Source of the DNA: Thermoleophilia bacterium
Lineage (GTDB): Bacteria > Actinomycetota > Thermoleophilia > Gaiellales > Gaiellaceae
NCBI GenBank assembly: GCA_025928515.1
Contig: JAICJI010000003.1
Coordinates: 1-64,000, forward strand
DNA: 64,000 nucleotides
Direction of reading: 5' to 3'
This document shows positions 52,005 through 55,955 of the stretch, piece by piece. A program made the position numbers and the translations under genes. The notes below the pieces were generated by a model that was given only the letters and a program-made list of their open reading frames with translations, did not search any database and was not told the origin of the DNA. Numbering within the stretch: position 1 is the stretch's first letter; every line of letters starts with the position of its first letter.

Positions 52005-53326
52005 CTCAAGCGGCCGAGCGCGGTGAAAAGTGCCGCGACCGTGTCGATCCCGGCCGCGAAGTACTCGACGAGGAAGCGCTCGTTCGGCGAGTGCACGTTC
52101 GACTCCGGCAGCGCGAAGCCGCTGAGGACCGTGTCGATGCCCTTCTCGGTCAGCGCCGGCATGAGCGGGATCGAGCCGCCCACCCGTGTGAGCAGCGGGC
52201 GCACGCCGAGCGTCTGCTCGAACGCTTCGAGCGCAAGCTGAACGGCAGGCGCGTCCCCTCTGACGAGGCCCGGATTCGCGCCCACGAACTTGATCTCGAG
52301 CTCCGCCCCGGCCGGAGCCGCCTCACGTAGGAGCCGCTCTGCGGCGGCACCGATCGTCTCGACGTCCTGGCCGGGAGCGAGGCGGATCGAGAACTCGGCC
52401 GAGGCAGCGATGCTGAGCGTCGTGTTGCGGATGCCGGGCTTGCCGCCCACGATCCCGTTCACGTCGGCCGACGGCTCCGCCCAGGTGCGGAGGTAGAACT
52501 CCTCGGCGGCCTTCGGGTCGAGCGGCTGCGCACCGGCATCCGAAAGCGATTCGGCGCCCGGGGGCAACGTCGACCATGCCTCGAGCTCCTCCGCCGTCGG
52601 CGCGGCGATGCCCTGACGCAGCGGCTCCGGCAGCAGTCCGTTCGGGCCTGCAAGCACGGCCTGGAGGCAGCCCATCAGGACGTGGATCGCGTTCAGCGCA
52701 GCGCCGCCGTACATCCCGGAGTGGAGGTCGCGCTCGCCCGTCCGTACCTTGACGTCGAGCCCGACAAGGCCGCGGGTCGCGAGCTCGATCGTCGGCACGC
52801 CGCGCCGCAGCATCCCGCCGTCGAAGATCACGGCCGCGTCTGCACCGCGCTCGTCCTGCCCGACCCAGTCGGCGATCGTGTGGCCGCCGATCTCCTCCTC
52901 GCCGTCGCATGCAAAGCGGAGGTTGACGGGCAGCGCGCCCGCCTCGGCGAGCCGCTGGGCCGCCTTGAGGACGAGCCAGAGCTGGCCCTTGTCGTCCGCG
53001 ACGCCACGCGCGTACGCCCACTCGCCGCGGATGTCGAGCTCGAACGGATCGGACTCCCAGAGCTCGAGCGGCGCGGGCGGCTGCACGTCGAAGTGGTTGT
53101 AGACGAGGACGGTCGGCGCGTTGCCGCCGCCGTTCGAAGCGGGGATCTCGCCCAGTGCGAGCTCCTTCTCACCGAACGGGGTCAGCTCGGCGGTGCCACC
53201 GATCCGGCGGATGAACTCGCAGACCCACTCCCCCGCGCGCTTCACGTCCTCCCGGTGGGCCGGGTCGGCGCTCACGCTCGGGATCGCAATCAGCTCCGCC
53301 AGCTCGGCGCGCCAGGCCTCATCCAC
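52001..53326 (-). CDS. M20-family zinc metallopeptidase (dipeptidase)
   Basis: A 441-residue M20/M28-fold exopeptidase. Metal-ligand blocks are VLVYNHFDVQPP (His and Asp), GVADDKGQLWL (bridging Asp), CDGEEEIGG (catalytic Glu and Glu ligand) and GIDTVLSGFALPESNVHSPNE (His near the C-terminus). The plan matches carnosinase-like and PepV-like dipeptidases. ATG-type start at 53326 is followed by DEAWRAELAELIAIPSVS. It overlaps the soxR stop by 8 bases and may share the soxR transcript. Confidence 0.92.
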   Translation of the reverse strand: MDEAWRAELAELIAIPSVSADPAHREDVKRAGEWVCEFIRRIGGTAELTPFGEKELALGEIPASNGGGNAPTVLVYNHFDVQPPAPLELWESDPFELDIRGEWAYARGVADDKGQLWLVLKAAQRLAEAGALPVNLRFACDGEEEIGGHTIADWVGQDERGADAAVIFDGGMLRRGVPTIELATRGLVGLDVKVRTGERDLHSGMYGGAALNAIHVLMGCLQAVLAGPNGLLPEPLRQGIAAPTAEELEAWSTLPPGAESLSDAGAQPLDPKAAEEFYLRTWAEPSADVNGIVGGKPGIRNTTLSIAASAEFSIRLAPGQDVETIGAAAERLLREAAPAGAELEIKFVGANPGLVRGDAPAVQLALEAFEQTLGVRPLLTRVGGSIPLMPALTEKGIDTVLSGFALPESNVHSPNERFLVEYFAAGIDTVAALFTALGRLS

Positions 53327-53768
53327 GAGGAGAGACTCTACGGAGATAGTGCGCGCCTCCGCCGAGCGAACCCGCTTCGTCCTCGGGATTGAGCAGCGCG
53401 CACGTGCGCAGCGAGAGGCAGCCGCAGCCGATGCACGTCGTCAACCGGTCGCGCACGGACTCGAGCGTCGCGATGCGCTCGTCGAGCTCGCGCGCCCAGC
53501 TGCGCGAGAGCCGCTCCCAGTCGCGCTTCGTCGGTGTCTTGCCGGCCGGCAGCTTGTCGAGCGCGTCCCGGATCCGCTCGAGCGGGATGCCCGCCGCCTT
53601 GCCGGCCTGCACGAGCGCGACGCGGCGCAGAGTCACGGACGCGTACCGCCTCTGGTTGCCGTCGGTGCGCCACGCCGAGACGAGGCCTTCGCGCTCGTAG
53701 AAGCGAAGCGCCGACTGCGAGACGCCGCTGCGCGTCGAGAGCTCGCCGATGGTGAGTTCTCTTGCCAT
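53319..53768 (-). CDS. soxR: redox-sensing transcriptional activator SoxR
   Basis: A 149-residue MerR-family activator. The HTH is ELTIGELSTRSGVSQSALRFYEREGL (about 4-29). The [2Fe-2S] cluster ligands are Cys112, Cys115, Cys117 and Cys123 (C-x2-C-x-C-x5-C), diagnostic of SoxR, which senses redox-cycling compounds. The start ATG at 53768 faces the transketolase genes; a 19-base-spaced promoter lies in the 37-base gap. In actinobacteria SoxR acts directly on target genes without SoxS, fitting control of the divergent transketolase. Confidence 0.95.
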   Translation of the reverse strand: MARELTIGELSTRSGVSQSALRFYEREGLVSAWRTDGNQRRYASVTLRRVALVQAGKAAGIPLERIRDALDKLPAGKTPTKRDWERLSRSWARELDERIATLESVRDRLTTCIGCGCLSLRTCALLNPEDEAGSLGGGAHYLRRVSPRG

Positions 53769-53799
53769 TTGACTTAAACCATAGTTGAGGTTCTACGGT
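53769..53799 (+). promoter_or_regulatory. SoxR-type promoter with 19-bp spacer
   Basis: TTGACT (53769-53774) and TACGGT (53794-53799) are 19 bases apart, the over-long spacing that MerR-family activators such as SoxR compensate by DNA distortion. Inside the spacer CTTAAACCATAGTTGAGG (53773-53790) is an imperfect 18-base dyad (6 of 9 pairs) resembling the SoxR box CCTCAA...TTGAGG. Transcription would begin at about 53806, the transketolase ATG. Confidence 0.7.
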
Positions 53800-53805
53800 G
53801 TAGTC

Positions 53806-54450
53806 ATGGCAATAACGACGACACCCGGCTACGACGCTTTGCCGGCGCTGATCACACGGCTGACCGGCGACGAGAAGCACGATCGGAGCTCGTTCTCGAC
53901 CCTCGACGTGCTGTGGGTTCTCTACGACCGCGTCCTCGGCGAGGAGGATCGCTTCGTCCTCTCCAAGGGTCACGGCCCCACCGCGTATTACGCAGTGCTC
54001 GCCGCGAAAGGACTGATCCCGACGGAGCTGCTCGACGGGTTCGGCGACTTCGAGTCGCCGCTCGGACACCATCCCGACCGCGTCCTCGTGCCGGGCGTCG
54101 AGTTCTCGAGCGGCTCGCTCGGCCACGGGCTCGCGGTGGCGACGGGACGCGCCCTGACAGGCCGCCGCGTGTACTGCCTCGTAGGAGACGCCGAGCTCGA
54201 GGAGGGCTCGAACTGGGAGGCAGTGCAGTACGCCGGGCGGATCGGCCTCGCGTCGCTGACGGCGATCGTGATCGACAACGACTCCTCCTCGCACGGCTGG
54301 CAGGAAGGGGTCGAGCGCCGCCTCATGCTCGAGGGCTGGGTCGCGAGACGGGTCGACGGACGCGACCACGAGCAGCTCGCCGCGGCACTCGCGCCCGACG
54401 CCGACGGAACGCGGCCGCGGGTAATCGTCGCCGAGGTGGAGCCGAGATGA
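53806..54450 (+). CDS. transketolase, N-terminal subunit
   Basis: A 214-residue thiamine-pyrophosphate-binding half of a split transketolase, which shifts two-carbon units between sugar phosphates in the pentose phosphate pathway. Features: FVLSKGHGPTAYYAVLA (active-site His), GSLGHGLAVATGRAL and GDAELEEGSNWEA (TPP-Mg site, GDG-like). Ends near the linker, without the pyrimidine-binding domain. The likely promoter ends 7 bases upstream, so the mRNA may be leaderless. Its stop overlaps the C-terminal subunit start by 4 bases. Confidence 0.92.
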   Translation: MAITTTPGYDALPALITRLTGDEKHDRSSFSTLDVLWVLYDRVLGEEDRFVLSKGHGPTAYYAVLAAKGLIPTELLDGFGDFESPLGHHPDRVLVPGVEFSSGSLGHGLAVATGRALTGRRVYCLVGDAELEEGSNWEAVQYAGRIGLASLTAIVIDNDSSSHGWQEGVERRLMLEGWVARRVDGRDHEQLAAALAPDADGTRPRVIVAEVEPR

Positions 54451-55322
54451 CGTCGATGCGGCAGCGCTTCTACGAGATCGCGCGCGAGGCACTCGACGAG
54501 GACGAGCGAGTCGCGGTCGTCACGGCCCAAATCGGCACCGACTCGGTGGGCGAGCACCCGCGCCACTTCGACGTCGGCATCCGCGAGCAGCTGATGATCG
54601 GCGTCGCCGCCGGGCTCGCGGCCGAGGGCTACCGACCCGTCGCACACTCCTACACGCCGTTCCTCGTCGAGCGGCCGTACGAGATGCTCAAGCTCGACCT
54701 CGGCCACAACGACCTCGGCGCCGTGCTCGTCAGCATCGGCGCGTCCTACGACGCCGCGCGCGAGGGGCGCACGCACCAGGCGCCCGAGGATGTCGCGCTC
54801 GTTGCGGCACTTCCCGGCTGGACGATCCACGTGCCGGGACATGTCGACGAGGTCGACGTGCTCCTCCGGCACGCGCTCGCCGACGACGGCCGCGTCTACA
54901 TCCGGCTCAGTGAGGAGACGAACCACGCCCGCGTCGACGGCGGCGGCTTCACTGTTTTGCGACGCGGCTCGCCCGGCTCGGCGCTCGTCCTTGCCGTCGG
55001 CCCCACGCTCGGCCCGGTGCTCGAGGCGACCGTCGAGCGCGACGCAACCGTCGCGTACCTGGCGACGGTGCGCCCGTTCCCGCACGGCGAGCTGCGCGAC
55101 GCGCTCGGGAGCGGGAGCGACGTCGTCCTCGCCGAGCCGTATCTCGCCGGCACCTCGTCGGCGGAAGTAGCCGTCGCGCTCCAGGACCGCCCTCACCGGC
55201 TGCTCGCGCTCGGCGTCCCGAATGCCGAGCTCCGCCGCTACGGAACCGGGCCGGAGCACCGGGCCGCGCACGGGCTCGACGCGGCCGGGATCGCACGCTC
55301 GCTCGACAGCTTCCTCTCGTAA
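54447..55322 (+). CDS. transketolase, C-terminal subunit
   Basis: A 291-residue pyrimidine-binding and C-terminal half of the split transketolase. FDVGIREQLMIGVAAGLA holds the catalytic Glu that activates the TPP imino-pyrimidine; THQAPEDVALVAALPG and VYIRLSEETN are the family blocks, and the C-terminal transketolase domain follows (VLAEPYLAGTSSAEVA). ATG overlaps the N-terminal subunit stop by 4 bases, so the two halves are made together, probably under SoxR control. Together they resemble TktA split enzymes seen in many actinobacteria and archaea. Confidence 0.92.
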   Translation: MTSMRQRFYEIAREALDEDERVAVVTAQIGTDSVGEHPRHFDVGIREQLMIGVAAGLAAEGYRPVAHSYTPFLVERPYEMLKLDLGHNDLGAVLVSIGASYDAAREGRTHQAPEDVALVAALPGWTIHVPGHVDEVDVLLRHALADDGRVYIRLSEETNHARVDGGGFTVLRRGSPGSALVLAVGPTLGPVLEATVERDATVAYLATVRPFPHGELRDALGSGSDVVLAEPYLAGTSSAEVAVALQDRPHRLLALGVPNAELRRYGTGPEHRAAHGLDAAGIARSLDSFLS

Positions 55323-55343
55323 CCTTCGGCCATCGGCGCCTTC

Positions 55344-55568
55344 TTGAAGCGGACAGTCCGCGCGGTGAAGATCGTCGCGCAGCACGGCGACATCCCGCGA
55401 CCGCTTCGCTGGCTTGCCGCCGTCGGGCTGCTCCCGGTGCCGGGGCCGTTCGACGAAGCCTTGCTTCTCCTCGTCGCCGCGATCCTGTTCGTGTTCTACC
55501 GGCCCCAGCTGCGCGACGCGTGGCAGCAGAGCTCACGCGAAGTCGTCGGCGAAGTCCCAGCCCCGTAG
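55344..55568 (+). CDS. small membrane protein
   Basis: A 74-residue protein with a basic N-terminus (KRTVRAVKIVAQHGD), the motif IPRPLRWLAAVGLLPVPGPFDE and one hydrophobic helix (ALLLLVAAILFVFYR). The PGPFDE/helix pattern recalls small actinobacterial YkvA-like proteins, a weak resemblance. TTG start at 55344. Its 3' end overlaps the convergent pyridoxamine-oxidase-like gene by 36 bases. Confidence 0.55.
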   Translation: MKRTVRAVKIVAQHGDIPRPLRWLAAVGLLPVPGPFDEALLLLVAAILFVFYRPQLRDAWQQSSREVVGEVPAP

Positions 55569-55955
55569 CTCCGTCGGCTCGAGACGTACGAGCACGCTGC
55601 CGTCTCCGGCGGTCTCCGCATACGCCGGCCCGTCGTCGGGGCCGAGATAGCGAACCGCCATCGAGGCGATTGCCTCCGTCGCCCCGTCAAAGGCGAGACG
55701 CGCCTGACCGCGGGCTTCGAGCCCCCGGTACGGAGGCTCGTGGTCGTAGACGAGGACGCTCATCCGCGGATCGCGGCGCAGGTGCCGGAGCTTGACGTCG
55801 TTCGGGCCGATGGCCACGTCGAAGCCGTTGTCATGCCAGCGATGCCAGACCGGCGAGAGGAGGACGCTCCCGTCGGCGCGGTACGTGGCCATGACGGCGA
55901 CGAGCGGCAAGCCAAGCAGGTCGCCGAGCTCGGCCGGGCCGAGGTCCCTGCGCAT
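55533..55955 (-). CDS. PPOX-class F420/FMN-dependent enzyme
   Basis: A 140-residue split-barrel flavin-type protein of the pyridoxamine 5'-phosphate oxidase superfamily. VAVMATYRADGSVLLSPVWHRWHDNGF is the typical opening and KLRHLRRDPRMSVLVYD the typical middle; ARGQARLAF follows. In actinobacteria this group mostly uses coenzyme F420 and reduces unsaturated substrates, or binds heme; specific role unknown. ATG at 55955, 21 bases from the end of the sigma factor gene. Confidence 0.87.
   Translation of the reverse strand: MRRDLGPAELGDLLGLPLVAVMATYRADGSVLLSPVWHRWHDNGFDVAIGPNDVKLRHLRRDPRMSVLVYDHEPPYRGLEARGQARLAFDGATEAIASMAVRYLGPDDGPAYAETAGDGSVLVRLEPTELRGWDFADDFA

What the first reader, a model, noticed from the sequence alone, without database searches (positions are those of the whole stretch)
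53769..53806. SoxR promoter drives an apparently leaderless split transketolase
A 19-base spacer between TTGACT and TACGGT, a dyad inside the spacer, and the soxR gene divergently adjacent form a textbook MerR-type target. The predicted transcription start coincides with the transketolase ATG. Redox control of the pentose phosphate pathway (NADPH supply) through SoxR would be a direct defence circuit.
Basis: partly seen in the sequence, partly recalled or inferred. Interest (0 to 1): 0.6.

Follow-up and report, generated by a model that had tools for sequence, protein, structure and literature searches.

The report
SoxR switch for a transketolase-like enzyme
A 37-base stretch between two genes carries a binding site for the redox sensor SoxR whose predicted RNA start is the first base of a two-part transketolase-like gene; this layout recurs in dozens of actinobacteria, and the enzyme has lost the phosphate-holding residues of true transketolases, so its job is probably not the sugar-phosphate one its name suggests.

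Summary
TTGACT-(19)-TACGGT at 53769-53799, with a SoxR dyad, fills the gap between a genuine soxR gene (TIGR01950 above cut-off, CX2CXCX5C) and tkN-tkC. It is the only such box in the 2.0-Mb assembly, even with 3 mismatches. In the class sample, all 10 genomes carrying this transketolase subfamily have the box, divergent soxR, and a start codon exactly 6 nt after the -10. In named genomes, 42 of 44 subfamily members (Actinomycetota and Chloroflexota) have the box; 40 of the 42 have ATG 6-7 nt after it, and 31 of those have an in-frame stop inside the box. Leaderless translation is therefore strongly supported. A conserved reverse -10 inside the operator suggests that soxR is also near-leaderless and self-repressed (inference). 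The boxed genes form one clade; its sister genes lie beside an ArsR/SmtB regulator and have no box. The pentose-phosphate/NADPH interpretation is not supported: the subfamily lacks three of the five phosphate-orienting residues (RSFHR) and the H263 loop, the genome has a separate full-length transketolase near G6PD, and no other SoxR box was found. A SoxR site upstream of one transketolase (SAV_1623) was noted in 2014 (PMC4146615). Breadth, leaderlessness and the altered active site appear new.

The parts
53319..53768 (-). soxR: [2Fe-2S] MerR-family redox regulator, 149 aa, start codon directly against the -35 of the divergent promoter
   Evidence: TIGR01950 SoxR 187.5 bits (cut-off 116.9); MerR HTH and MerR-DNA-bind Pfam domains; CX2CXCX5C motif CIGCGCLSLRTC; only SoxR over cut-off in the assembly
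53769..53774 (+). -35 element TTGACT of the tkN promoter
   Evidence: sequence; invariant in the 10 orthologous loci
53772..53791 (.). SoxR operator dyad ACTTAAAC-CATA-GTTGAGGT inside the 19-nt spacer
   Evidence: sequence; conserved in orthologues and in 78 boxes of the class
53775..53793 (+). 19-nt spacer, the MerR-type hallmark
   Evidence: sequence
53778..53783 (-). putative -10 (TATGGT) of soxR inside the operator, 9 nt before the soxR start codon
   Evidence: reverse TANNNT present in 18 of 22 boxes with an ATG/GTG abutting the -35 versus 6 of 55 without
53794..53799 (+). -10 element TACGGT of the tkN promoter
   Evidence: TANNNT with fixed spacing in 10 of 10 orthologues
53806..53806 (+). 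predicted transcription start = A of the tkN ATG (leaderless)
   Evidence: 6 nt between -10 and start codon in 10 of 10 class loci; 6-7 nt in 40 of 42 boxed named relatives
53806..54450 (+). tkN: ThDP/pyrophosphate-domain subunit of a split transketolase-like enzyme, 214 aa, ends before the H263 loop
   Evidence: PF00456; Foldseek best match 6yak N chain; alignment with full-length TKs
54447..55322 (+). tkC: pyrimidine plus C-terminal domain subunit, 291 aa, overlaps tkN by ATGA
   Evidence: PF02779; fold matches DXS and the split TK C chain 6yaj; motif counts

Best explanation
The 37 bases between soxR and tkN form one compact redox switch. SoxR sits on the dyad in the 19-nt spacer. When its [2Fe-2S] cluster is oxidised by redox-active compounds it twists the over-long spacer and activates tkN-tkC. 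The message begins at, or within a base of, the tkN start codon and is translated without a leader; tkC is coupled through an ATGA overlap. The same bound SoxR covers a second -10 reading the other way, so soxR is probably near-leaderless and limits itself. tkN-tkC encodes a two-subunit ThDP enzyme that keeps transketolase cofactor and donor residues but has lost the phosphate grip. It most likely moves a two-carbon or acyl unit to or from an unphosphorylated carbonyl compound, as a detoxification or repair step, and does not run the pentose phosphate pathway. Shown: sequence anatomy, conservation, one-clade distribution, residue losses. Inferred: SoxR binding and activation, transcription start, self-repression, substrate class.
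For: soxR identity. Box, register and start codon conserved 10/10. In the class sample the 10 carriers of the subfamily (E below 1e-80) are exactly the genomes with the box at this gene; the 7 nearest split TKs lack it there. 42 of 44 named relatives have the box and 40 have ATG 6-7 nt after it; about half have no soxR within the fetched flank, so the box is not simply a soxR autoregulatory site. Tree: 50 boxed sequences in one clade (SH-aLRT 99) with a single unboxed member. Leaderlessness goes with this gene: 10/10 versus 21/67 for other SoxR boxes, 39 of which have a leader with Shine-Dalgarno. Phosphate motif lost: H466 0/28, R525 0/28, S383 1/28, while E418, H69, H103 and N187 are invariant and D157 33/34 (motif defined in PMC11659671). 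Both halves fold as TK/DXS domains. Transketolase plus G6PD elsewhere, one box in the assembly.
Against: No binding, transcript or enzyme data. Two Chloroflexota members have a 30-39 nt gap between box and ATG. S. coelicolor SoxR was reported not to be a repressor (PMC4146615), so self-repression may not hold generally. Sulfofructose transketolases lack parts of the phosphate motif yet still transfer to glyceraldehyde-3-phosphate (PMC11659671), so loss of the motif does not prove unphosphorylated substrates. The assembly is about 79% complete, so other SoxR targets could be missing. Catalytic numbering rests on alignment and recalled structure knowledge.
Confidence: 0.72

Rival explanations
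1. SoxR induces an ordinary transketolase to push carbon through the pentose phosphate pathway and so support NADPH supply.
For: Transketolase_N and Transket_pyr domains; ThDP and donor-side His/Glu kept; G6PD present in the genome.
Against: Phosphate-orienting S383, H466 and R525 lost in nearly all members; H263 loop missing; scores far below every transketolase equivalog cut-off; a separate full-length transketolase lies near G6PD and no second box was found.
Confidence: 0.13
2. The box serves only soxR autoregulation; tkN merely happens to start next to it and is expressed from elsewhere.
For: soxR is adjacent in all 10 class loci, and a reverse -10 lies inside the dyad.
Against: 23 of 42 boxed named relatives show no soxR within the fetched flank but keep box and ATG spacing. 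The -35/-10 register is fixed to the tkN start, and the frame has a stop inside the box.
Confidence: 0.05
3. SoxR controls tkN-tkC, but the transcript carries a short leader or starts elsewhere, so the leaderless reading is wrong.
For: No transcript data; two Chloroflexota members have 30-39 nt between box and ATG.
Against: 6-7 nt spacing in 50 of 52 loci despite N-termini of varying length; no Shine-Dalgarno; in-frame stops inside the box in 31 of 40; no other promoter-like site found by the scan of 53400-55600.
Confidence: 0.08

Closest known systems
SoxR regulon of Streptomyces, including the S. avermitilis SAV_1623 footnote (PMC4146615)
   Same: SoxR boxes in promoters of single enzyme genes; that paper's Table 4 footnote lists SAV_1623, a putative transketolase, as having a conserved SoxR site
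   Different: There it is one footnote in one species. Here a clade-wide link in two phyla is shown, with leaderless start, split gene and altered active site. Whether SAV_1623 belongs to this subfamily was not tested.
Escherichia coli soxR-soxS divergent pair (own knowledge; Wu and Weiss 1991 is cited in PMC4146615)
   Same: Divergent gene pair with one SoxR dyad in an over-long spacer, dyad in the same register to the -35
   Different: Target is an enzyme pair, not a second regulator; both start codons bound the element and the target appears leaderless
Split transketolase of Carboxydothermus hydrogenoformans (6YAK/6YAJ)
   Same: Two genes, one per domain set; best solved match for tkN and among the best for tkC
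   Different: That enzyme has the RSFHR phosphate motif and a longer N chain (309 aa); this one lacks S, H and the second R and ends before the H263 loop
Sulfofructose transketolase SqwGH (PMC11659671)
   Same: Split transketolase with a changed phosphate-orienting motif and non-standard sugar substrate
   Different: RAFDR there, R-D/A-F-G/A-variable here; no sulfosugar genes seen near the locus
Leaderless genes of actinobacteria (PMC4633059, PMC4681348)
   Same: Start codon at the transcription start
   Different: Here leaderlessness is tied to a MerR-type regulated promoter and conserved with the gene

Membership tests
SoxR (MerR family) | Equivalog profile TIGR01950 above curated cut-off | tested here: met
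   187.5 bits versus 116.9
SoxR (MerR family) | Four-cysteine [2Fe-2S] motif CX2CXCX5C | tested here: met
   CIGCGCLSLRTC in the translation
SoxR (MerR family) | Binds the dyad and is activated by redox-active compounds | not testable with these tools
   needs EMSA/footprint and induction assays
MerR-type promoter | -35 and -10 separated by 19-20 nt with a dyad in the spacer | tested here: met
   TTGACT-19-TACGGT, dyad 53772-53791; conserved
Leaderless gene | Start codon at the transcription start expected from the -10, no Shine-Dalgarno | tested here: met
   6 nt after the -10 in 10/10, 6-7 nt in 40/42. The physical 5' end is not testable here.
Split transketolase architecture | Separate PP-domain and PYR+C-domain subunits encoded together | tested here: met
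   pair kept in 43 of 44 loci
Canonical (sugar-phosphate) transketolase | ThDP/Mg site and donor histidines (D157, N187, E418, H69, H103; H30 equivalent) | tested here: met
   invariant or nearly so
Canonical (sugar-phosphate) transketolase | RSFHR phosphate-orienting motif | tested here: not met
   R and F kept; S 1/28, H 0/28, second R 0/28
Canonical (sugar-phosphate) transketolase | H263 loop (KGKG...HG) | tested here: not met
   N chain ends before it in the aligned members
Canonical (sugar-phosphate) transketolase | NCBIfam equivalog score above cut-off | tested here: not met
   116.9 and 70.1 bits against 488; the halves score separately, so this is weak evidence
SoxR-controlled pentose phosphate pathway | SoxR box at G6PD or the housekeeping transketolase | tested here: not met
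   only one box in the assembly with up to 3 mismatches; G6PD and TK on contig C43; assembly 79% complete

The most novel reading that the evidence does not exclude
A widespread, previously unrecognised two-subunit ThDP enzyme detoxifies or repairs damage from redox-active compounds by carbon-carbon bond chemistry on unphosphorylated substrates. It came under SoxR once, from an ancestor beside an ArsR-type regulator. It is run from a promoter in which both divergent genes are leaderless or nearly so and share one operator.
Probability: 0.3. Interest if true: 0.75.

Novelty: new variant of a known kind. Interest (0 to 1): 0.55.

Why it matters
SoxR targets outside enterics are few and mostly transporters and oxidoreductases that handle redox-active antibiotics. 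A SoxR-controlled ThDP enzyme kept across Actinomycetota and Chloroflexota, often where SoxR itself lies elsewhere, suggests an unrecognised chemical step in that response. The fixed start codon right behind a MerR-type -10 gives a clean, testable case of a regulated leaderless message, and it ties activation, self-repression and translation start into 37 bases. The annotation 'transketolase' would mislead metabolic models if the phosphate grip is truly gone.

Tried and rejected
The sigma-70 scan finds nothing here because it allows only 16-18 nt spacers. A search for conserved neighbours of tkN-tkC beyond soxR found none shared by most loci, and the sister ArsR-type loci showed no obvious conserved cargo, so context does not reveal the substrate. 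SAV_1623 appears in only one held paper and its sequence was not fetched, so its membership stays open. A chance origin was rejected. Whole-protein fold searches point to TK for tkN and to DXS/TK for tkC but do not settle specificity. Searches for SoxR together with leaderless genes gave no paper listed as describing such a promoter (results judged from title and abstract only).

Full report
OBSERVATION. Between the soxR start codon (ATG, minus strand, ending at 53768) and the tkN start codon (ATG at 53806) lie 37 bases: TTGACTTAAACCATAGTTGAGGTTCTACGGTGTAGTC. TTGACT and TACGGT are separated by exactly 19 nt. A dyad ACTTAAAC-CATA-GTTGAGGT spans 53772-53791. The last -10 base is 53799, so the usual +1 is 53806, the A of the ATG. 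In tkN's frame a TGA stop lies at 53770-53772, inside the -35; the only other in-frame start codon before the ATG, a TTG at 53785, lies upstream of the -10.

IDENTITY OF THE GENES. The minus-strand gene is SoxR: TIGR01950 at 187.5 bits against a cut-off of 116.9, with MerR domains and the four-cysteine motif CIGCGCLSLRTC. It is the only SoxR over cut-off in the assembly. tkN (214 aa) matches Transketolase_N and tkC (291 aa) matches Transket_pyr. They overlap by ATGA. AlphaFold models are confident (mean pLDDT 87.7 and 92.2) and match the split transketolase 6YAK for tkN, and DXS and split-transketolase C chains for tkC.

CONSERVATION OF THE SWITCH. Seven orthologous loci from the first relatives search, from two families of the order, all show divergent soxR, the same box and a start codon (ATG in six, GTG in one) exactly 6 nt after the -10. 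A class-wide pattern scan found 78 boxes in 67 of 399 genomes and none with the reversed control pattern. Ten of those boxes lie before this transketolase, all with soxR divergent and all with the 6-nt spacing. A profile search of the same class sample shows that the ten genomes with the strongest tkN matches (E below 1e-80) are exactly these ten; the next seven split transketolases have no box at the gene. In the window's own assembly there is one box even with three mismatches allowed.

In named genomes the subfamily is found in Streptomyces, Kitasatospora, Amycolatopsis, Saccharopolyspora, Lentzea, Nocardiopsis, Rhodococcus, Williamsia, Actinoplanes, Micromonospora, Kocuria, Chloroflexota and others. 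Of 44 members, 42 have a SoxR-type 31-mer just upstream, and in 40 of these the ATG follows 6 or 7 nt after it (three rows list an earlier GTG at 0-1 nt but also carry the ATG at 6-7). The two exceptions are Chloroflexota with 30-39 nt. In 31 of the 40 the reading frame has a stop inside the box itself. The N-terminal extension varies greatly in length between members, but the ATG stays fixed to the promoter, not to the protein domain. Only 19 of the 44 show soxR within the fetched flank, so in about half of the boxed members the box is not there for an immediately neighbouring soxR.

LEADERLESSNESS. Among the class boxes, 10 of 10 transketolase boxes have the adjacent start codon and no Shine-Dalgarno, against 21 of 67 other SoxR boxes with an adjacent ATG; 39 of those 67 have a leader with a Shine-Dalgarno (Fisher p 4e-5, not corrected for shared ancestry). 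The same regulator and promoter type therefore makes led messages for other genes, and leaderlessness goes with this gene. Leaderless genes are common in actinobacteria (PMC4633059, PMC4681348), so the translation mode itself is not strange.

SOXR SIDE. In the window's lineage the soxR start codon abuts the -35. Where an ATG/GTG abuts it, the operator carries a reverse TANNNT exactly 9 nt before that codon in 18 of 22 cases, against 6 of 55 boxes without one. In the window this is TATGGT at 53783-53778. This suggests a second, near-leaderless promoter that bound SoxR would occlude. The idea is inferred; S. coelicolor SoxR was reported not to be autoregulated and not to act as a repressor (PMC4146615).

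EVOLUTION. A tree of 93 N-chains puts 50 boxed sequences in one clade (SH-aLRT 99) with one unboxed member. Just outside it are split transketolases that have an ArsR/SmtB-family regulator with an ETCACDF motif nearby, mostly divergent and adjacent. The simplest history is a single change of regulator to SoxR. Close SoxR proteins (66-73% identical) in other members of the window's family stand instead beside a Rieske protein or a small unknown protein, so the SoxR neighbourhood is modular.

WHAT THE ENZYME IS. Against full-length transketolases from the same class, the cofactor and donor residues are kept (H30, H69, H103, D157, N187, E418 and H481 equivalents). The H263-bearing loop is absent and the phosphate side is altered. 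Counting over 28-34 members: E418, H69, H103 and N187 invariant, D157 33/34, H30 32/34; S383 1/28, H466 0/28, R525 0/28. These are three of the five RSFHR residues that orient the sugar phosphate in ordinary and split transketolases (PMC11659671). The G000 genome has a separate full-length transketolase, with G6PD on the same contig, and no SoxR box was found there. So the pentose-phosphate/NADPH story is the weakest part of the finding. A caution: sulfofructose transketolases also have an altered motif and still use glyceraldehyde-3-phosphate as acceptor (PMC11659671), so only an assay can name the substrate.

PRIOR KNOWLEDGE. Naseer and colleagues (PMC4146615) noted in a table footnote that S. 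avermitilis SAV_1623, a putative transketolase, has a conserved SoxR site; no other held paper mentions it. The link itself is thus not wholly new. What appears new is its breadth, the clade-wide leaderless layout, the altered active site and the ArsR-type sister group.

VERDICT. Real, functional-looking and conserved. SoxR control is close to certain by sequence standards (about 0.93), leaderlessness very likely (about 0.88), non-canonical substrate likely (about 0.7). These three figures are judgements, not computed values.

Noticed in passing
L195-L200 (relatives G016, G046, G276, G037, G310, G038): The sister clade of split transketolases has no SoxR box; an ArsR/SmtB-family regulator with an ETCACDF motif lies in the fetched upstream DNA, mostly divergent and adjacent, with TATATAG-like sequences in several gaps: a second stress-type regulator on the same enzyme type.
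   Followed up: partly
L033, L035, L037, L039, L040, L041, L043, L049, L084: SoxR proteins 66-73% identical to the window's, with the same box, stand beside a ~490-aa Rieske [2Fe-2S] protein and/or a ~125-aa protein without a Pfam match instead of the transketolase.
   Followed up: partly
L063, L082, L101, L102, L106: SoxR boxes in the class also precede a ~107-aa protein of the Pfam 'Luciferase' domain (PF17648), often with the start codon 6-7 nt after the box, another candidate leaderless SoxR target.
   Followed up: no
L057 (G303 C81), two boxes about 1 kb apart: Two SoxR boxes on opposite strands close together in one genome, suggesting a small local regulon.
   Followed up: no
G000 C43:18705-23963: Housekeeping transketolase and G6PD lie within about 5 kb of each other, apparently the ordinary pentose phosphate gene cluster.
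   Followed up: partly
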